Origin: a virus
DNA: 38,256 nt
Virus record (IMG/VR): IMGVR_UViG_3300046791_000304
Location: 1-38,256 of that record
Direction: 5' to 3' (one strand)
A program made the translations under genes and the position numbers. Of the stretch, positions 2,151 to 19,049 are shown one piece after another. Position 1 is the first letter of the stretch; the number at the start of each line of letters is the position of its first letter. A model generated the notes under the pieces. It was given only the letters and a program-made list of their open reading frames with translations. It ran no database searches and was not told the DNA's origin.

Positions 2151-2596
2151 ACATCCGCCAGGACATCGCCGACCTCCTCCACGCCGGCATGCCACAGATC
2201 CACATCTGCCGCCAACTCCACGTCGCCCCGCTCACTGTCCAACGCACCCGCGAAGCCCTCGGCCTCCCCGCACCCACAACACGTCCGTTCCTGCCGGCCA
2301 CCCTCGAAGCAGCCTTCCGCCGATACGCGCAGCCCACCGAGGACGGCCACGTCGAGTGGACCGGACCCGTCAACAACGGCTCCCCGAAGGTGGTGTTCGC
2401 GGGCCGCGTGCACTACGCGCGCCGGATCTCCTTCCGCCTCCGCCACGGCCGCGACCCGATCGGCAGAGTCACCGTCGCCTCCAGCTGCACGGTGAAGGAC
2501 TGCGTGGCCGGGGACTGCGTCGAGGACCAGCGGATGCGTGCGGCCAACAAGCGGGCCGACCGCGCGTTCTCGGCGATCTTCGGGGAGGCGGCATGA
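2147..2596 (+). CDS. HTH protein with HNH-like remnant
   Basis: The 149-residue protein starts at an ATG overlapping the resolvase stop (ATGA). Residues 1-40 resemble a helix-turn-helix (DIADLLHAGMPQIHICRQLHV followed by a TVQRTR recognition helix). The second half has a WTG motif, an Arg-rich stretch and a C-x4-C-x4-C pattern. This resembles small phage HNH proteins, but the catalytic His positions are not clearly kept. It may be a DNA-binding regulator derived from a nuclease. Family assignment is tentative. Confidence 0.6.
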   Translation: MNIRQDIADLLHAGMPQIHICRQLHVAPLTVQRTREALGLPAPTTRPFLPATLEAAFRRYAQPTEDGHVEWTGPVNNGSPKVVFAGRVHYARRISFRLRHGRDPIGRVTVASSCTVKDCVAGDCVEDQRMRAANKRADRAFSAIFGEAA

Positions 2597-3036
2597 ACCA
2601 CCACGCCGAACCCGACTGGCACACCCGCGCCCTCTGCCTCGGCATGGACGCCGACGTCTTCTTCCCCGAGCCCGGGGACGTCGCCGCCACCAACCACGCC
2701 AAGCGCATCTGCACCGGCTGCCCGGTCCGGCAGGCGTGCCTGACCAACGCGCTCCGCGAAGAGGGCGGCCGGGCCAAGGACAACCGGTTCGGGGTCCGTG
2801 GCGGGAAGGCGCCTGGGGGCCGGTACGCGATGTACACGGTGTACCGCAAACAGCAGCAGCACACGAAGAAGGCCAAGCCCGAGCCGAAGAAGCGGGAGAC
2901 GGCCAAGTGCGGCACCCGCGGCGGCTACAAGAAGCACCAGAGGGAGAACACGGAGATCTGCCCGCCGTGCCGCCAGGCGAACACGGATGCCGACAACCGG
3001 CTCCGGCGGACCGGCACTTCGAAGGCCCTGGCGTGA
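2593..3036 (+). CDS. WhiB-family regulator with C-terminal Cys extension
   Basis: This 147-residue protein has the WhiB signature: Cys15, then Cys40, Cys43 and Cys49 in a CTGCPVRQAC segment that would hold a [4Fe-4S] cluster, followed by the GVRGG turn. WhiB proteins are actinobacterial transcription factors that act with the principal sigma factor, and phage copies can interfere with host WhiB function. An extra C-terminal part, rich in Lys then CGTRGGY and CPPC (about residues 103-135), is not part of the usual WhiB core and could bind zinc. The start overlaps the previous stop. A second WhiB gene follows directly. Confidence 0.88.
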   Translation: MNHHAEPDWHTRALCLGMDADVFFPEPGDVAATNHAKRICTGCPVRQACLTNALREEGGRAKDNRFGVRGGKAPGGRYAMYTVYRKQQQHTKKAKPEPKKRETAKCGTRGGYKKHQRENTEICPPCRQANTDADNRLRRTGTSKALA

Positions 3037-3275
3037 GCGGCCAGGTGGTCGCTGCGACGTGGGCCGAGCGCGCGGCCTGCGTGGGACGGGATGTCGAGGA
3101 CTTCTTCACCGAGAGCAGGCCCCGCGTCAGGGAGATCAAGAACCTGTGCGCTGGCTGCCCGGTCCGCAGGCTGTGCCTGGACGAGGCGATGCGCGCGGAG
3201 GACACCTCCCGCTACGGCATCTACGGCGGACTCACCGCCGCCGAACGCACCGACCTGGCGCGAGGCATCCGATGA
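3033..3275 (+). CDS. WhiB-family regulator (short form)
   Basis: The 80-residue product is a minimal WhiB protein. Cluster ligands are Cys16, Cys39, Cys42 and Cys48 (CAGCPVRRLC), followed by YGIYGGLTAAER, which matches the G-[IV]-x-G-G turn and the helix after it. The GTG start overlaps the TGA of the preceding WhiB gene. The two proteins share the core but differ in tail, consistent with an old duplication or two separate acquisitions. It ends the first early transcription unit, just before a hairpin at 3314-3340. Confidence 0.88.
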   Translation: MSGQVVAATWAERAACVGRDVEDFFTESRPRVREIKNLCAGCPVRRLCLDEAMRAEDTSRYGIYGGLTAAERTDLARGIR

Positions 3276-5816: not shown

Positions 5817-7724
5817 GTGACGAACGTCCGCCACATGCCGCACGACCAGGCGGACCAGGACGGCCCCGAGCGGTACGACGCCGAGCGGTACGTCCTCGGC
5901 GACTGCATGCACCACCCCAAGAAGATCAACGAAGTCCGGGCCGTCATCCGCCGCGACGACTTCGCACTCCCCGCCCACGAGCTGATCTGGGACGTGATCG
6001 GCCACCTCCACGACACCGGCCAGCCCATCAGCCCCCTCGCCCTGCGCCTGGAACTGGAGAAGCGGAAGGAACTGCAACGCGCAGGCGGCATCAGCTACAT
6101 CAACCAGCTCGGCGACTACAGACTCGACGCCGAATACCACGCACACATCGTCCGCCGTGACGCCGACCTCCGCGCCGAAGCCGACCTCGGCCGCCGCATC
6201 GTCCAGCAGGCCACCGCCCCCGACGCCGAGCCCGGCGCAGCGGTCACGTTCATCGACGACTACCTCCAGCAGCAGAAGGAACGTGCCGCCGGCCGCTCCG
6301 GCGATCCCGCCGATGCCCTGCTGGCCGAACTCCTCGACGCCAGCTCCCTCGACAACATGCCCACCCTGGAGCCCCTCGTCGGTGACCTCCTCCACCTCGA
6401 CAGCCTCGCCCGCGTCGTCGGCCCCTCCGGGCACATGAAGTCGTTCATGGTCATCGACTTCGCCGCGCACGTCGGCACCGGCTTGAAGTGGCACGGCCAC
6501 CACGTCCGCCAGGGCACCGTCGTCTACCTCGTCGCCGAGGGCGCCCGCGGCATCCGCAAGCGGGTCCGCGCCTGGGAGAAGCACCACGGCCTGAAGATGA
6601 CCGACGTCCTGTTCTTGCCCCGGCCCGTCCAGGCGATGAGCCCCGAGTGGGACACCCTCATCGAGGCGATGCGCCGCCTCGCCCCGTCGATGATCGTCAT
6701 CGACACCCAGGCCCGCATCAGCGTCGGCGTCGAAGAGAACTCCGCCAAGGAGTTGGGCCTCGTCGTCGACCGCATGGAGCAGCTCCGCGCCGCCACCGGC
6801 GCGTGCGTCCTCGTCATCCACCACACCGGTCACGTCGGCGAGCACGGCCGCGGCAGCTCCTCCGCCAAGGGCGCGTTGCAGTCCGAGCTGCACGTGTCGA
6901 AGAAGGGCGACCGCGCCGCCAACATCGTCATCACGCTGAAGACCGGCAAGCAGAAGGACGACGAAGAGGGCGCAGACCTCCAGTTCGGGCTGAAGGTCGT
7001 CACCATCGACGGCGAGTACAAGCCCGACGGCCGGCCCGTCACCTCGGTCGTCCTGGAGTCCCTCGACGTGCGGCCCGCCGAGCTGGTGAAGGGCACGCCG
7101 GAGTGGCTCGTCACCGTGCTGGACCGGGCGCACGTCCCGCTGAAGTGGGGCAGCCCCCGCGTCCACAAGTGGTGCACCGAATACAAGATCCAGATGCGCA
7201 AGGACAAGATCGAAGAAGCCGTCCGCCTACGGAAGAGCCGGGACTCCTTCGACGAGGCGCAAAACGGGACGGGGGATGACATCCCTGACCCCTATATCGG
7301 GACGGGGGATGACGAGTCGGACATCGACCCTGTGGGGGTGTCCGATTCACCCCGAAATACCTCCCCCCAAACCTCCCCCGCGATCTTGAACGGCCACCTC
7401 CCCCACGATCTTGGGGGGAGGCCGGGGGAGTTCGGGCAAAACCCCACGTCAAACATCCCCCCAGCTTCGGGGGGAGATCGGGGGGAGCCCCTAACAGCAC
7501 CTCCCTCCCCCCGCCCCTCCTCTAGGGAGGGGGGAGGTGCGGGGGACGACAGGGAAAACACCACCCCCACCGGACCCCCCTGCACCGTCTGCGACAAGCC
7601 CCTCCACGGCTACAGACGAGACCGCGGATACGACACCTGCCTCAGCTGCGACCCCATGACCGGAAGCCACCCCGACAGGCCCAGCCACCCGCCAGCCGAA
7701 GACGAACACCACGGCGCCGCCTGA
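5817..7724 (+). CDS. DnaB N-domain / RepA-type ATPase (replicative helicase-like)
   Basis: The 635-residue product (GTG start after GAGGAG) has a DnaB N-terminal domain at about residues 20-100 (ERYVLGDCM, DDFALPAHELIWDVI). It then has an AAA_25/RepA-like RecA-fold ATPase with Walker A GPSGHMKS (202-209), Walker B MIVID (292-296) and VLVIHHTGH (331-339). Residues from about 480 to 590 are a low-complexity Gly/Pro/Ser linker encoded by the G-tract region at 7265-7540. The protein ends in a CxxC-type zinc knuckle (CTVCDK, then CLSC). RepA/AAA_25 proteins are hexameric helicases; the domain pairing suggests the phage's own replicative helicase. An in-frame start further upstream would overlap the antitoxin gene and is unlikely. 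Confidence 0.85.
   Translation: MTNVRHMPHDQADQDGPERYDAERYVLGDCMHHPKKINEVRAVIRRDDFALPAHELIWDVIGHLHDTGQPISPLALRLELEKRKELQRAGGISYINQLGDYRLDAEYHAHIVRRDADLRAEADLGRRIVQQATAPDAEPGAAVTFIDDYLQQQKERAAGRSGDPADALLAELLDASSLDNMPTLEPLVGDLLHLDSLARVVGPSGHMKSFMVIDFAAHVGTGLKWHGHHVRQGTVVYLVAEGARGIRKRVRAWEKHHGLKMTDVLFLPRPVQAMSPEWDTLIEAMRRLAPSMIVIDTQARISVGVEENSAKELGLVVDRMEQLRAATGACVLVIHHTGHVGEHGRGSSSAKGALQSELHVSKKGDRAANIVITLKTGKQKDDEEGADLQFGLKVVTIDGEYKPDGRPVTSVVLESLDVRPAELVKGTPEWLVTVLDRAHVPLKWGSPRVHKWCTEYKIQMRKDKIEEAVRLRKSRDSFDEAQNGTGDDIPDPYIGTGDDESDIDPVGVSDSPRNTSPQTSPAILNGHLPHDLGGRPGEFGQNPTSNIPPASGGDRGEPLTAPPSPRPSSREGGGAGDDRENTTPTGPPCTVCDKPLHGYRRDRGYDTCLSCDPMTGSHPDRPSHPPAEDEHHGAA
7265..7540 (+). repeat. G/C-tract direct and inverted repeats in the helicase linker
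   Basis: This coding stretch contains a 16-bp direct repeat, CGGGACGGGGGATGAC (7265-7280 and 7298-7313). It also has a 17-bp near repeat starting CCTCCCCC (7372-7388 and 7397-7413, one mismatch). Hairpins occur at 7397-7421 (8-bp stem), 7456-7475 (7-bp stem) and 7514-7532 (7-bp stem, inside a larger 7498-7539 structure). Runs of five or six G recur on the top strand and could form quadruplexes. Base use differs sharply from the flanking coding sequence. Confidence 0.7.
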
Positions 7725-9325: not shown

Positions 9326-10774
9326 ATGACCACACCCGCCAGCCCGACCGCCCTCGATCTGCTGAAGCGGGCCGAGTCCTACCTGTCCGCACTCCACGGC
9401 TCCGTCGCCCGGCACGACAACCTCGCCGCGAACCTGGGCTGCGCGGGCTGCGAACTGCGGGACAAGATCCGCAACGAGCTGGCCGCCATCGACTGGACCG
9501 ACGGCCATCCGCAGTTGGAGGCGATCGCTGCCGCCGTGTGGGAGCAGTGCGGGCGCAGCGACAACGGCAGTTGCGTCGAAGACGACCCGAGGAACATCGC
9601 CGCGGCTGCACTCGCTGCCGTGTTGCCGCCGCCAGCCGACTCCGCCGCCGAGGAGGCGTACCGGCTCGCCCTGTCGACCGCCCTCGGCCTCGGCACAGCA
9701 GCCAACTGGGAGGCGATCCGCGACCGGGCCGAAGACCTGACGGCCGAGGTCGAGCAGCTCACCGAGACGAGCCGTCGACTCCTGGAGCAGCGGCAGGAGA
9801 TGGCTGCCGAGCGGTTCGTATGGCAGGAGCGTGGCGATCGGGCGGAGGCTCGCGTCCGGCAGTTGGAGGCCGCCGCGCCCGTCGACCGGGCCACCGTCGA
9901 GGAGCACCGGCTGGCCCTGTCCGACGCGTTGGGGCTGGGCACGGGCGCGCCGTGGGATGCGATCCGCGACCGGGTCACGGAGCTGGCACTCCCGCCGCTC
10001 GGACAGGACCCCGTTGCCCGACGGCTAGGACTGGTGGCCGAGCACCGGGCCACCGTCCTCAACGAGGCCGCCGAGGTGGCGGAGTCCTTCGACATCGACG
10101 CGAGCCCCCAAGCGGTCGCCGCCGAGTTGCGCAGTCTGGCCGACGAGGAGCGTGCCGAGCGGGAGGCGCAGGCCCACCTCGACCAGCTCGCCGACGAACT
10201 ACCCCCCGCGCCTGCCGCCGACCGGGCCGCGCTCTCCGCGAAGCTCTGGCAGATCGCCTGGCACCACATCGTCGCCGAGTGGATCTGCTGCGAACCGCTC
10301 GACCCAGAGCACGACCTGTGCGCCAAGGGCTATGCGGCGCTGGAGATGGCCAAGGCCCTGCTCGTCGACAGCGATCCGGAGGAGGCGTGGAATCCGGCGG
10401 CCCCGCTGCTGGACGCGGTCCTCGCCGAACTCGGGGCCGCCGCGTCGTGTCCCGACCCGATCGAGTGCGGGCACGAAGCCGCACTCGGACAGGCGCAGAC
10501 CGCCGTCGCCGAACTGGCCCAAGCCCTGCGTCTCACCCGCGAGTACTTCGGTGAGGAGCTGCTCCCGCCTGTCGAGGGCTGGTCCTGGTACGACGCGCTG
10601 CGCCGTCACGCGCCGCACGAGCTGCCCGCCGTTGTCCCGGCCGGGGCTGGCGAGACGTCGTGCCCCGGCTTCCCCGACGGCTGCCCGACCCTCATCGCCG
10701 TCGTACCCACCGTGGGCAGCACACACGGCGGCGGCCTCCGCTGCGGCTGCTACGACGAGAAGAGCACGCCGTGA
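9326..10774 (+). CDS. Large helical hypothetical protein with internal duplication
   Basis: The 482-residue protein is Ala/Glu/Leu-rich and mostly helical. It contains two clear copies of a 28-residue unit with the core RLALS-ALGLGT followed by W-AIRDR (about residues 112-138 and 192-218). Coiled-coil-like sequence lies between and after them. A Cys pair near the N-terminus (CAGC) and a Cys-rich end could bind metal. AGGAG lies seven bases before ATG 9326; an in-frame ATG at 9275 sits inside the terminator and is rejected. Function unknown. Confidence 0.7.
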   Translation: MTTPASPTALDLLKRAESYLSALHGSVARHDNLAANLGCAGCELRDKIRNELAAIDWTDGHPQLEAIAAAVWEQCGRSDNGSCVEDDPRNIAAAALAAVLPPPADSAAEEAYRLALSTALGLGTAANWEAIRDRAEDLTAEVEQLTETSRRLLEQRQEMAAERFVWQERGDRAEARVRQLEAAAPVDRATVEEHRLALSDALGLGTGAPWDAIRDRVTELALPPLGQDPVARRLGLVAEHRATVLNEAAEVAESFDIDASPQAVAAELRSLADEERAEREAQAHLDQLADELPPAPAADRAALSAKLWQIAWHHIVAEWICCEPLDPEHDLCAKGYAALEMAKALLVDSDPEEAWNPAAPLLDAVLAELGAAASCPDPIECGHEAALGQAQTAVAELAQALRLTREYFGEELLPPVEGWSWYDALRRHAPHELPAVVPAGAGETSCPGFPDGCPTLIAVVPTVGSTHGGGLRCGCYDEKSTP

Positions 10775-14424: not shown

Positions 14425-14790
14425 CTACTCGGCGGGCGTGATCGCCTCGGCGTAGCCCGGACAGTCGGAGTACACCGACGCGAGATCAAGCAGCGTCTCC
14501 CGCGCGAGATCGATCACCGTGTCGCTCTCGTAGTAGTCCCAGCCGAGTTCGAGCACGCCCGCCATGCGGGTGAGGACACGCCTTTTCGCCTCGACCTCGC
14601 GCAGCGCCTGAGGCGACCGCTCTTGGTACGTCACGTCGTCAGGGTCTTCGTCGGCCCCGCAGGTCAAGCACCTGCCGTCCTCGACGTACGACTCCATGCA
14701 GTAGCCCTTATGCCAAGCGGGCATTGCGATCGGCGCGGCGTCGGCGCCGAGCTGCTCGCCGAGCCAACGCACCAGATCATCCACCGCCAT
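14425..14790 (-). CDS. DUF6221-like hypothetical protein
   Basis: The 121-residue product begins MAVDDLVRWLGEQL and has a central CMESY-x5-CLTCG Cys group followed by helices containing VLTRMAGV and a C-terminal DCPGY. This matches my recollection of the DUF6221 family, common in Streptomyces genomes and phages. Function is unknown. It is coupled to the HTH gene upstream: the ATG overlaps that gene's stop, and a GTG at 14793 is an alternative. Confidence 0.65.
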   Translation of the reverse strand: MAVDDLVRWLGEQLGADAAPIAMPAWHKGYCMESYVEDGRCLTCGADEDPDDVTYQERSPQALREVEAKRRVLTRMAGVLELGWDYYESDTVIDLARETLLDLASVYSDCPGYAEAITPAE

Positions 14791-15239
14791 CACCCGGCCC
14801 CCTCGAACCGGTACACCTCTGCGTACAGCTCGCCGATCAACGCGCTCCGCTCGGCCAGCGGAAGCGACAGGAAGTCCGGTACCTCGTCCAACACCGCCCG
14901 CTCGATGTCCTCGAAGCGCTTCAGTACGTGGTCGCCGCTCTGTCCGCGAATGGCCACGTAGAGAGATGCGACGTCCAGCGTGGTCGCTGCCATGGGGTCT
15001 CCTTGCTGCTTGTCGGCGAGGTCGGTCCGCTTGCCCTGCTGTGGCGGGTGAGCCGCGAACCAAGCGGCGACCTCGTCAGCGCGGTAGTGGGTCTTCGTGG
15101 AGCCCTCGACCGGGACCGGCTGAGGGAAGGAGGCGCTGCGCCGGTACGTGTGCAGTGCTGACCGGCTGACCCCGTGCTCCTGCTCGATCTGCTTCAACGT
15201 GATCAAGCGGCTCCCCTCGCTCTCAGGGTGTTCGGGCAC
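14790..15239 (-). CDS. HTH regulator (AlpA/excisionase-like)
   Basis: The 149-residue protein (GTG 15239) carries a helix-turn-helix near its N-terminus (LITLKQIEQEHGVSRSAL followed by HTYRR), then SFPQPVP and a YRADEVAAWF segment. This layout is that of AlpA/MerR-like winged proteins and phage excisionases. A longer frame opens at GTG 15287. I prefer 15239 because GGGGAGG lies eight bases upstream and the longer start would place a 27-bp palindrome inside the coding region. It probably regulates its own cassette and the divergent genes to the right. Confidence 0.72.
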   Translation of the reverse strand: MPEHPESEGSRLITLKQIEQEHGVSRSALHTYRRSASFPQPVPVEGSTKTHYRADEVAAWFAAHPPQQGKRTDLADKQQGDPMAATTLDVASLYVAIRGQSGDHVLKRFEDIERAVLDEVPDFLSLPLAERSALIGELYAEVYRFEGAG

Positions 15240-16142: not shown

Positions 16143-17636
16143 GTGGAGACGCCCACCGGCGACCGCCCCACCCTCACCACCCTCCAACGCCGACTCGTCA
16201 TCACCGTCGCCGCCGGAGCCGCCACCATCGCCGCGATCGGATTCGCCGGCTCCTACGCCGCCGTCCGCCACCTCGCACACGCGAAGGGGTTCGGCACGTT
16301 CGCCATGGTCTTCCCCATCGGCATCGACGCCGGAATCCTCGTGCTCCTCGCCCTCGACCTGCTCCTCACCTGGCTGACCATGCCGCTCGCCCTGCTGCGC
16401 CACACGGCATGGCTGCTCACCGCGGCAACGATCGCGTTCAACGGAGCGGCAGCCTGGCCCGACCCGATCGGCGTCGGCATGCACGCGTCGATCCCCGTGC
16501 TGTTCGTGGTCGTCGTCGAAGCGGCCCGGCACGCGATCGGCCGCACCGCCGAGATCGTGGCCGGACGCAGCATGGACTCCGTCCGCCTGGTCCGCTGGCT
16601 CCTCGACCCGATCTCGACCTTCCGCCTGTGGCGCCGCATGAGGCTGTGGGAGCTGCGCTCGTACGACGACGTGATCCAACTGGAGCAGTCGAGGCTTGTC
16701 GAGCGGGCCCGGCTGCGCGCTCGGTACGGACGGAAGTGGCGGAGCAAGGCTCCGGTGTCGGCCGTCATGGCGCTGCGGCTCACTCGGTACGGGCGGGCTC
16801 TGGCTCCGGTCTCAGGCGTCCTCGACATCGAGCACGGGCCAGCGCTCGCCCCGAAGAGCAGCCCACGGGCGATCGAGTCAAGCACGTTCGAGGCCGCCGC
16901 CGATCAGGCGATCACCGTGACCACCGGAGAATCCCCGGCCCGGTTCCCAGTGCTGCCGCCCGCGCTTCCGCGTAGGCGCCCCTCCAAGGAGCAGCCGTCG
17001 TCCATTCCCGCGGGCCCTCTCGGTGAAGCCGTCGAAGACGTACGGGCGCTCTTCGGGAATGCCCACGCCCCCATCGTGTACTTCCTCCGCAACGGCAGCC
17101 GCGTCAAGATCGGCGTCTCACAGAACATCAAGCGCCGCGTCGCCGCCCTCTCGCTGCGCCCCGACGACGTCATCCGCGCCGAGCACGGGCACCAAGAACA
17201 CGAGCGGCGGCTTCACGTGCGCTTCGCCGACCTCCGCGTCGACGACACCGAGTGGTTCGAACTGCGTGGCGCGCTGGCCGAGTACCTCGGACTGCCCGCC
17301 GAGGAAGAAGTGTCCGGACGTCCGGACACGGAGACGGACACCACCCCGGACGCGTCCGGACAGCTGGCCATCGACCCGGACATGGCGTCCGGACATGACG
17401 AACCAGGACCCGTCTCCACTTCCTTGACCAGCCCGGACACGCGTCCGGATAGTCCGGACGCACTGTCCGTCCTCGCCGAGGCGGCATCCGGTCCGTCCGA
17501 CCTCGTCCGCTCCCTCGCCGCCCACGGCATCACGAAGGACGCCCTCGTGTCCGAGGCTGTCCGGCTGCGTCCGGACATGGTCGCGGACAGCATCCGCCGC
17601 ACTGCTAAGCGCCTCGGTGAAGGGCCGTATCTGTGA
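16143..17636 (+). CDS. DUF2637 membrane domain fused to a GIY-YIG (MUG113/T5orf172-type) domain
   Basis: The 497-residue protein starts at GTG 16143 after GGGAG. Residues 15-130 hold four hydrophobic spans and match the DUF2637 pattern seen in Streptomyces plasmid transfer (Spd-like) and phage proteins. A basic, coiled region follows (160-220), then a linker. At about 311-375 lies a GIY-YIG-type domain: VYFLRNG, VKIGVS, IKRRVAAL, HERRLHVRF and EWFEL, as in MUG113/T5orf172 proteins. A Pro/Asp/Ser-rich segment (390-445) and a helical C-terminus end it. Fusion of the two domains would put a nuclease-like domain at the membrane. Catalytic competence is not certain. Confidence 0.75.
   Translation: METPTGDRPTLTTLQRRLVITVAAGAATIAAIGFAGSYAAVRHLAHAKGFGTFAMVFPIGIDAGILVLLALDLLLTWLTMPLALLRHTAWLLTAATIAFNGAAAWPDPIGVGMHASIPVLFVVVVEAARHAIGRTAEIVAGRSMDSVRLVRWLLDPISTFRLWRRMRLWELRSYDDVIQLEQSRLVERARLRARYGRKWRSKAPVSAVMALRLTRYGRALAPVSGVLDIEHGPALAPKSSPRAIESSTFEAAADQAITVTTGESPARFPVLPPALPRRRPSKEQPSSIPAGPLGEAVEDVRALFGNAHAPIVYFLRNGSRVKIGVSQNIKRRVAALSLRPDDVIRAEHGHQEHERRLHVRFADLRVDDTEWFELRGALAEYLGLPAEEEVSGRPDTETDTTPDASGQLAIDPDMASGHDEPGPVSTSLTSPDTRPDSPDALSVLAEAASGPSDLVRSLAAHGITKDALVSEAVRLRPDMVADSIRRTAKRLGEGPYL
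17312..17576. repeat. Array of palindromic octamer GTCCGGAC
   Basis: Six exact copies of GTCCGGAC start at 17312, 17320, 17354, 17387, 17452 and 17569, with a variant GTCCGGAT at 17443. The octamer is its own reverse complement. Copies fall in different reading frames (one reads Ser-Gly, the next Pro-Asp), so the repeat is at DNA level rather than a peptide repeat. The array lies inside the 3' part of the DUF2637/GIY-YIG gene and suggests a binding-site cluster. Confidence 0.65.
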
Positions 17637-17806
17637 GTCCGACCGCGATCGTCTTCTGGCTCATGGCCGCGCTCCTCGGTGCGGCCGGCCTCCACGCCAT
17701 AGCCCCACGCCGCGCCCCCGGCCTCTACATCGCCCCAGCCGCCCGCACCGTCGCCCTCATCACCGCCGCCGTCCTGTACGTGGCGATCATCTGGAGCCAC
17801 TCGTGA
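17633..17806 (+). CDS. Small membrane protein (57 aa)
   Basis: GTG overlaps the stop of the DUF2637 gene, and the stop overlaps the next GTG. Two hydrophobic segments (about residues 5-22 and 36-54) are joined by a short basic loop (PRRAPG), giving a hairpin in the membrane. It is too small for a family call. Confidence 0.55.
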   Translation: MSPTAIVFWLMAALLGAAGLHAIAPRRAPGLYIAPAARTVALITAAVLYVAIIWSHS

Positions 17807-18303
17807 ACATCACCCGCAACCTCGTCACGCTCGGCGGGGTCGTCGTCGGCCTGTCGATCCTGGCCTGGAACCTCACCCGCTGGTGGGCCGGAAGCAAGAA
17901 GCGCAGCGTCCGCGACCTCATGCCGTTCATCACCTGCGCCCTGTACGGCATGCTCCTCATCCTCACCACCGGCGGCATCCTCGGGGGCGCCGCCGACTAC
18001 GCCCTTTGGGGATCCTCCGAGATCGGCAACGCCGCCCTGACGTACGGCGTCGGAGCGGGCACACCGAACGTCACCCGCTCAACGGACCTCGTCCTCACGG
18101 ACGGGGGGAGTGCCGTGGTCATCGTCGCCACCGTCGTCCTGGTCGCCGTGTGGACCCGCAAGCGCGGCTTTCGCTGGGACTTCGCCCTGGACATCGTGTG
18201 CGGCATCAGCCTGGGCCTTTCCTCGGGTATCGCAGGGGCTGTCGGCCAAGTCCTCGGCCCGGTCGTTAACACGTCCGGCGACTGGATTGTGGGGCTGATG
18301 TGA
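17803..18303 (+). CDS. Multi-span membrane protein
   Basis: The 166-residue product has about four hydrophobic segments: residues 7-24, 42-64, 101-116 and 125-152. Short basic loops (RWWAGSKKRS, WTRKRG) separate them. GTG start overlaps the previous stop. Adjacent to DUF2637 and other membrane genes, it may belong to one envelope complex, resembling small Spd-type proteins of actinobacterial plasmids only in topology and context. Confidence 0.6.
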   Translation: MNITRNLVTLGGVVVGLSILAWNLTRWWAGSKKRSVRDLMPFITCALYGMLLILTTGGILGGAADYALWGSSEIGNAALTYGVGAGTPNVTRSTDLVLTDGGSAVVIVATVVLVAVWTRKRGFRWDFALDIVCGISLGLSSGIAGAVGQVLGPVVNTSGDWIVGLM

Positions 18304-19049
18304 GGGCGATCCGCAGGCAGTTGGGGCTGGTCGCGGCAGGAGCTGGCGGCCAGCGCCGCGAATGGGCGTCGTGGGTGGGCTGCGGCCACGCCCGTACGGC
18401 GCTGGCGCGCCTGGCCGGTAGCGCGGCAGCCGTGTGGGCTGTCGGCGCCCTGGTGTGGCACACGCCGGGCCTGATGTGGCCGCTGGCCGGCGGCTGGCTG
18501 GTCGCAGTGTGGCGTCGGGGGCGCGAGATTGAGCGGCAGCAGGATGCGGAGGCTGCGTTCGTGCAGTTCCTGCGGGACCGGATCGGTGACCGGAACGGGG
18601 TGCTGCTGGCCGAGTTGCTGGCCGGTCTGCATGCGGCGGAGATGCATCTCGACTGGGACGTGACGGCGTTGCGTCGGGTCGTTGAGCGGCTCGGCATCCA
18701 CGTGCGGGACAAGATCAAGGTGTCGGGGGATACGTCGGTGGGTGTGCACGTGGACGACCTCACCCATGTGTGGGATGTGGGAGTGACGCCCCCTCCCCCG
18801 CCGAGTGGGGGCCCCTCTCGCGAAGCGGTGAGCAGGGACAACTACCCAACTACCTTGGCTGACAGCCCCGCTCCGGCCCCTTCCGAGAAGGGGATGATGA
18901 TCAAGACGCCGGAGTCGTCGGTGACCGATGAGGAAGCTGAGCGGCTGCGCCTCCAGGACTACGTGAACCGTGTCGACGCTGCTAAGCAGGCCGCGTTCGA
19001 GGAGCACTTCACAGACGCTCTCGGCATCCTGGACGATCAGGCATCCTGA
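18300..19049 (+). CDS. Membrane-anchored hypothetical protein
   Basis: The 249-residue product (GTG overlapping the previous stop) has a basic N-terminus and one or two hydrophobic segments (about residues 33-70). A cytoplasmic domain follows with a helical region REIERQQDAEAAFVQFLRD and a segment LDWDVTALRRVVERLGI. After a proline run it ends in a charged coiled-coil-like tail. No family is recognised. It is the last of the membrane-protein run that starts with DUF2637. Confidence 0.6.
   Translation: MRAIRRQLGLVAAGAGGQRREWASWVGCGHARTALARLAGSAAAVWAVGALVWHTPGLMWPLAGGWLVAVWRRGREIERQQDAEAAFVQFLRDRIGDRNGVLLAELLAGLHAAEMHLDWDVTALRRVVERLGIHVRDKIKVSGDTSVGVHVDDLTHVWDVGVTPPPPPSGGPSREAVSRDNYPTTLADSPAPAPSEKGMMIKTPESSVTDEEAERLRLQDYVNRVDAAKQAAFEEHFTDALGILDDQAS

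What the first reader, a model, noticed from the sequence alone, without database searches (positions are those of the whole stretch)
16143..17636. DUF2637 membrane domain fused to a GIY-YIG-type domain
Four membrane spans of the DUF2637 type are followed by a MUG113/T5orf172-like GIY-YIG domain in one 497-residue frame with no stop between. DUF2637 proteins are associated with Streptomyces conjugative elements and phages. A nuclease-like domain on a membrane anchor suggests action on incoming or transferred DNA at the membrane, such as exclusion or processing. The next three genes are membrane proteins overlapping by four bases, so they may form one complex.
Basis: partly seen in the sequence, partly recalled or inferred. 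Interest (0 to 1): 0.7.

Follow-up and report, generated by a model that had tools for sequence, protein, structure and literature searches.

The report
Membrane anchor carrying own DNA docking sites
A Streptomyces-phage membrane protein ends in a DNA-binding tail, and the gene that encodes it carries a cluster of the short DNA sites that this tail probably recognises, so the phage DNA is likely tethered to the cell membrane; the nuclease-like domain that drew attention is an optional insert.

Summary
In detail: 16143-17636 encodes DUF2637 (Pfam E 2e-38) plus a MUG113/T5orf172 GIY-YIG domain (E 7e-8) in one frame. The fusion is not the main point. Relative to its closest same-tail relatives, the GIY-YIG block (residues 267-386) is a clean insertion.

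What the gene family keeps is a membrane domain, a disordered linker, a small C-terminal helical (HTH-like) tail and, within the linker DNA, an array of one short motif. Here 6 of the window's 7 GTCCGGAC palindromes lie within 265 bp, in two reading frames, beyond synonymous-codon shuffles. Such arrays occur in 38/70 phage DUF2637 genes and 1/78 chromosomal ones.

Motif class follows tail class in every locus that could be assigned. The same GIY-YIG/array/tail half sits on two unrelated membrane domains in other phages. Among 484 window ORFs, only this gene is shared by all five other array-bearing records. One tail class is FtsK-gamma-like (PDB profile E 1e-5), and its recognition-helix residues track one base of its 8-bp motif.

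Best explanation: a membrane-anchored, site-specific DNA tether with its sites inside its own gene. Binding and phenotype are inferred. Nearest precedent: pIJ101 SpdA2/sps. Nuclease-based exclusion is not supported as core function.

The parts
16143..17636 (+). gene: membrane anchor, GIY-YIG insert, site-bearing linker and C-terminal DNA-binding-like tail (497 aa)
16203..16664 (+). DUF2637 membrane domain (residues 21-174), four predicted helices in the membrane part
   Evidence: Pfam E 1.9e-38; model helices 13-47, 53-77, 83-104, 108-139 at pLDDT about 76-91
16941..17300 (+). block containing the GIY-YIG (MUG113/T5orf172) domain (residues 267-386), an insertion relative to same-tail relatives
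   Evidence: matches in G004/G005/G006 stop at 260-266 and resume at 386-387 after 6 bp; catalytic residues kept
17312..17576 (.). array of six exact GTCCGGAC palindromes (17312, 17320, 17354, 17387, 17452, 17569) plus GTCCGGAT at 17443 and GCCCGGAC at 17431
   Evidence: 6 of 7 in the window; codon phases 2,1,2,2,1,1; 2000 synonymous shuffles give at most 5
17460..17621 (+). C-terminal helical tail (residues 440-493), proposed DNA-binding domain
   Evidence: pLDDT about 90, four helices; shared by all GTCCGGAC-array phages; no Pfam family
17633..17806 (+). 57-aa protein with two hydrophobic spans, overlapping by 4 bases
17803..18303 (+). 166-aa multi-span membrane protein (phrog_16379), conserved next to DUF2637 in VWB, L047, G004, G005 and G006
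18300..19049 (+). 249-aa protein with one hydrophobic span, 34% identical homologue in VWB

Best explanation
The protein is a membrane-anchored, sequence-specific DNA tether. The N-terminal helices fix it in the membrane, a long disordered linker reaches into the cytoplasm, and the C-terminal tail binds short sites (here GTCCGGAC) clustered in the DNA that encodes the linker and tail. Several molecules bound to the array would hold that stretch of the phage genome at the membrane, most likely to place, replicate or segregate excised phage DNA in the hypha, as a motor-less centromere does. The array, its DNA-level nature and its match to the tail class are shown computationally. Binding by the tail is inferred. 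The cellular purpose is inferred and less certain. The GIY-YIG domain is an optional nuclease brought to the same place.
For: (1) The array is at DNA level: two codon phases in the window, both strands and several frames in relatives, beyond synonymous shuffles; 38/70 phage genes against 1/78 chromosomal genes, Fisher p 8e-15. (2) Motif class equals tail class in every locus that could be assigned. (3) Window and L003 are 91-92% identical in DUF2637 but have different tails and different motifs; L003's record has one GTCCGGAC in 35.6 kb, outside the gene. (4) The GTCCGGAC tail and array occur in three separate places on the DUF2637 tree and on two other membrane domains with no Pfam match to DUF2637. 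(5) Of 484 window ORFs only this gene has hits in all five other array records. (6) The array can lie outside the linker with the same tail class: continuing into the next gene in VWB, L087 and L168; after the gene in L170. (7) The FtsK-gamma-like tails show a residue-base correlation: IGQ-R gives base 5 = G (7/7), IGQ-[AP]-R gives T as commonest base (3/3), IGQ-x-K gives C (4/4); profile hits to FtsK gamma in PDB E 1e-5. (8) On plasmids DUF2637 genes sit beside ParA/ParB or coupling-protein genes.
Against: No binding was measured. Tail and linker are adjacent and can move together, which by itself gives some of the motif-tail match. The window's own tail type has no recognised DNA-binding family, and the full-length model found no PDB match. 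Thirty-two of 70 phage DUF2637 genes show no significant array in the linker; most of those in one tail group have instead a shared AGGCGCGC array about 3.5 kb downstream. Loci were chosen by similarity, so counts are not of independent events.
Confidence: 0.62

Rival explanations
1. The array is a site for another phage or host protein (replication initiator, terminase, repressor or a translocase of the FtsK/TraB type, as with KOPS or TRS sites), and the tail's match to it comes only from physical linkage.
For: Tail and linker are neighbours. FtsK gamma and TraB read 8-bp sites. In Gilgamesh-type phages the array is 3.5 kb from the gene.
Against: No other window ORF is found in all five other array-bearing records. 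VWB shares the AlpA-like and the two downstream genes with the window yet has a different motif. Residue-base correlation in the FtsK-gamma-like class.
Confidence: 0.15
2. The sites are operators or roadblocks through which the protein represses its own gene.
For: Sites lie inside the gene; autoregulation is common for DNA-binding proteins.
Against: 5 to 19 copies spread over 0.3-1 kb in the 3' half and running into the next gene are unlike an operator, and a membrane anchor is not needed for this.
Confidence: 0.1
3. The repeats have no DNA function: they reflect low-complexity linker peptides or repeat slippage.
For: Some linkers (L056, L060) have frame-locked peptide repeats.
Against: Two frames and palindromes in the window, both strands elsewhere, beyond codon shuffles; absent from chromosomal homologues with equally long linkers.
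Confidence: 0.07
4. One reading: a membrane-anchored nuclease for exclusion or processing of incoming DNA.
For: GIY-YIG catalytic residues are intact; another plasmid protein (L241) joins hydrophobic segments to the same domain.
Against: The domain is missing from the closest same-tail relatives and from the rest of the family, while anchor, array and tail remain.
Confidence: 0.06

Closest known systems
SpdA2/sps of Streptomyces plasmid pIJ101 (PMC4170104)
   Same: DNA-binding protein whose palindromic sites lie inside its own coding region; loss of protein or of sites (silent recoding) lowers segregational stability.
   Different: SpdA2 is a 135-aa protein not described as membrane-bound, with an N-terminal binding domain and one conserved 12-bp site (2-3 copies); here the protein is an integral membrane protein, the tail is C-terminal, and sites are about 8 bp, more numerous and of many classes.
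SpdB2 of pSVH1 (as described in PMC4170104)
   Same: Integral membrane protein that binds DNA.
   Different: Its reported DNA binding is non-specific; no site array in its gene is described. Sequence relation to DUF2637 not tested.
FtsK gamma domain and KOPS (2ve8/2ve9)
   Same: The VWB-type tails align with FtsK gamma (Pfam E 8.5e-4, PDB profile E 1.1e-5) and the arrays are 8-bp motifs.
   Different: No motor domain in this protein; the window's own tail class is not detectably FtsK gamma.
Noc of Bacillus (PMC4331003)
   Same: DNA-binding protein that brings specific sites to the membrane.
   Different: ParB-type, amphipathic helix, sites scattered on the chromosome, not in its own gene.
R388 StbA/stbDRs (PMC3098194) and prophage CGP3 AlpA/alpS (PMC4446434)
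   Same: Short repeats bound by a plasmid or prophage protein for stability, positioning or replication.
   Different: Sites lie around or upstream of the operon promoter, not in the coding sequence; no membrane domain in the binding protein is described in the passages read.
phi29 p16.7 (PMC4974454)
   Same: Phage integral membrane protein that binds viral DNA and anchors replication at the membrane.
   Different: Binds displaced single strands and terminal protein, not a sequence-specific double-strand array.

Membership tests
DUF2637 (PF10935) | profile match above gathering score | tested here: met
   132.3 bits against 22.8
GIY-YIG superfamily (MUG113/T5orf172) | profile match above gathering score | tested here: met
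   33.4/22.3 and 29.5/20 bits
GIY-YIG superfamily (MUG113/T5orf172) | conserved Tyr, Arg and Glu of the active site | tested here: met
   invariant in five relatives
GIY-YIG superfamily (MUG113/T5orf172) | GIY-YIG fold | tested here: inconclusive
   secondary-structure order fits but pLDDT about 50; no Foldseek match
GIY-YIG superfamily (MUG113/T5orf172) | nuclease activity | not testable with these tools
   needs an assay
SpdA/sps-type stability system | binding sites inside own gene | tested here: inconclusive
   site-like array in the gene shown; binding not measured
SpdA/sps-type stability system | sequence homology to SpdA and the sps palindrome CGTCACGTGACG | not tested
   motif here is GTCCGGAC; no SpdA sequence compared; not filed as a member
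FtsK gamma domain | profile match above gathering score | tested here: not met
   VWB-type tails score 19.4 bits against 30.6, though PDB profile search gives E 1e-5; window tail gives no match
ParABS partition system | ParA ATPase beside the binding protein | tested here: inconclusive
   no ParA recognised among the window genes scanned, but not every gene was scanned; ParA is present beside plasmid relatives L234, L235, L239, L173

The most novel reading that the evidence does not exclude
A widespread family of phage and plasmid proteins in Streptomyces acts as a self-addressed membrane centromere: an integral membrane anchor whose exchangeable DNA-binding tail reads an array of sites embedded in its own coding sequence, with anchor, nuclease insert, sites and tail shuffled as modules and with a readable residue-to-base code.
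Probability: 0.5. Interest if true: 0.85.

Novelty: new variant of a known kind. Interest (0 to 1): 0.72.

Why it matters
DUF2637 is a common family with no described function in the literature searched (one passing mention in 5.39 million papers). The arrays give it a testable role and could explain why these genes sit in phages, plasmids, partition loci and transfer loci. A protein whose binding sites are part of its own coding sequence keeps its sites through recombination. The tail classes with matched motifs offer a natural data set for decoding HTH specificity, and for testing how phage DNA is placed in a multinucleate hypha.

Tried and rejected
Nuclease as the core of the system: rejected because it is an optional insert. 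Chance clustering of GC-rich words: rejected. Linker-peptide repeats: rejected for the window, kept for some relatives such as L056 and L060. The AlpA-like protein at 14790-15239 as binder: no match in G004, G006, G007 or G008, which carry the array. More FtsK-gamma-like tails from host genomes: the genome search gave no answer, and a second viral scan returned mainly the same contigs. Foldseek on the full-length model found nothing useful. PDB sequence search with the GIY-YIG domain gave no real match. VIA-align ranked FtsK gamma among many tied HTH folds (Z about 4), so it is not decisive. A first round of family searches failed on a wrong gene boundary. Papers on phage VWB gave nothing about this gene.

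Full report
CHECK. The reading frame 16143-17636 encodes 497 residues without a stop. DUF2637 matches residues 21-174, and MUG113 and T5orf172 match 312-375, all above Pfam's cut-offs. The window is a 38,256-base virus record, a tailed phage with terminase, portal and tape-measure genes.

Between the GIY-YIG domain and the stop lies a disordered linker and a compact helical tail (residues 440-493, pLDDT about 90). In the DNA of the linker and tail the palindrome GTCCGGAC occurs six times in 265 bases; the whole window has seven. The copies fall in two codon phases, so no repeated peptide explains them. Shuffling synonymous codons of the linker and tail 2000 times gave a mean of 1.4 and at most five copies.

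THE SAME IN RELATIVES. Viral contigs gave 77 loci related to DUF2637, and genome contigs 80. In phage genes the linker DNA repeatedly carries an array of one short word, in most classes on both strands and in several frames: CGGCTCAC up to 17 times, CGCAGCCG up to 19, CGCATCCG, CGCACCCG, CGAACCCG, GAGGCGCC, TGTTCGCG and others. By one criterion 38 of 70 phage genes but 1 of 78 chromosomal genes have such an array. Plasmid L238 has twelve GCGTGAAC, again on both strands.

MOTIF FOLLOWS TAIL. Grouped by their last 50-70 residues, the proteins of one tail type have one motif type in every case that could be assigned. The window's DUF2637 domain is 91-92% identical to that of L003, yet L003 has another tail and the other motif (CGGCTCAC class), and its 35.6-kb record holds a single GTCCGGAC, outside the gene. 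On the DUF2637 tree the window's tail type appears in three separate places. Two further phages, L243 and L244, carry the GIY-YIG domain, the GTCCGGAC array and the tail behind different hydrophobic N-termini without a Pfam match. So the membrane domain is exchangeable, while array and tail stay together.

WHICH PROTEIN BINDS. Linkage alone could keep tail and array together, so rival binders were tested. Of all 484 open frames of the window, only this gene (with frames that overlap it) has matches in all five other records that carry the GTCCGGAC array. VWB shares the AlpA-like gene and the two downstream genes but has the CGCACCCG class. In the VWB-type class the tail resembles the FtsK gamma domain: Pfam E 8.5e-4, below the curated cut-off; six FtsK entries lead a PDB profile search from E 1e-5; and Foldseek's best hits are FtsK gamma, 37% identical over 38 residues, though with weak E-values. 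FtsK gamma reads an 8-bp site (established knowledge). In 14 such loci the two residues after IGQ go with base 5 of CGNANCCG: R at the first gives G (7/7), A or P then R gives T as the commonest base (3/3), K at the second gives C (4/4). These loci are related, so this is a correlation, not a count of independent changes.

ARRAY POSITION VARIES. In VWB, L087 and plasmid L168 the array runs on into the next gene. In plasmid L170 the same tail type as L007 goes with the same word (CGCCCCG) placed after the gene, in a stretch without a listed gene but with open frames. In most phages of one tail group, and in phage Gilgamesh, an AGGCGCGC array lies about 3.5 kb downstream.

THE GIY-YIG DOMAIN. 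Matches of the three same-tail records G004, G005 and G006 stop at residue 260-266 and resume at 386-387 after 6 bp: the block of about 267-386 is a clean insertion. Its active-site residues are intact. Close relatives occur on Streptomyces plasmids, one behind another hydrophobic N-terminus (L241) and one before another C-terminal extension (L242). A role in spreading the cassette is possible but untested.

FUNCTION. Neighbouring genes on several plasmids are ParA/ParB or type IV coupling-protein genes. The closest experimental precedent is pIJ101 SpdA2, which binds palindromes inside its own gene; loss of either lowers segregational stability (PMC4170104). Noc brings DNA to the membrane (PMC4331003), and p16.7 anchors phi29 replication there (PMC4974454). 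I therefore favour a membrane tether for excised or replicating phage DNA. Shown: array, its DNA-level nature, motif-tail match, modular exchange. Inferred: binding by the tail, tethering, and its purpose.

LIMITS. No binding data; loci chosen by similarity; the window tail itself has no recognised DNA-binding family; the paper library lacks subscription journals.

Noticed in passing
window 7355-7560: Dense both-strand CCTCCCCC/GGGGGAGG repeats inside the 3' end of the DnaB/primase-like gene 5817-7724: six of eight copies in the window; looks like a second in-gene array, perhaps the replication origin.
   Followed up: partly
L072, L075-L078, L080-L082, L084, L174 at about 9400-10400: AGGCGCGC array shared by Gilgamesh-type phages about 3.5 kb downstream of DUF2637; in Gilgamesh mostly in a gap without annotated genes.
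   Followed up: partly
L234 and L235: CACCTCTG/CAGAGGTG repeats at several places around a ParA, small ParB-like (CB_ParB_C) and DUF2637 gene row on 43-48 kb Streptomyces plasmids; likely the parS sites.
   Followed up: no
L241 1889-2785: Plasmid protein joining a different hydrophobic N-terminus to the same GIY-YIG domain, without DUF2637.
   Followed up: no
window 2593-3275: Two tandem small genes with WhiB-like cysteine spacing; seen by eye only.
   Followed up: no
L088: Streptomyces sp. STR69 genome contig carries a DUF2637 gene 93% identical to the window's, with the CGGCTCAC array and tail, most likely a prophage.
   Followed up: partly
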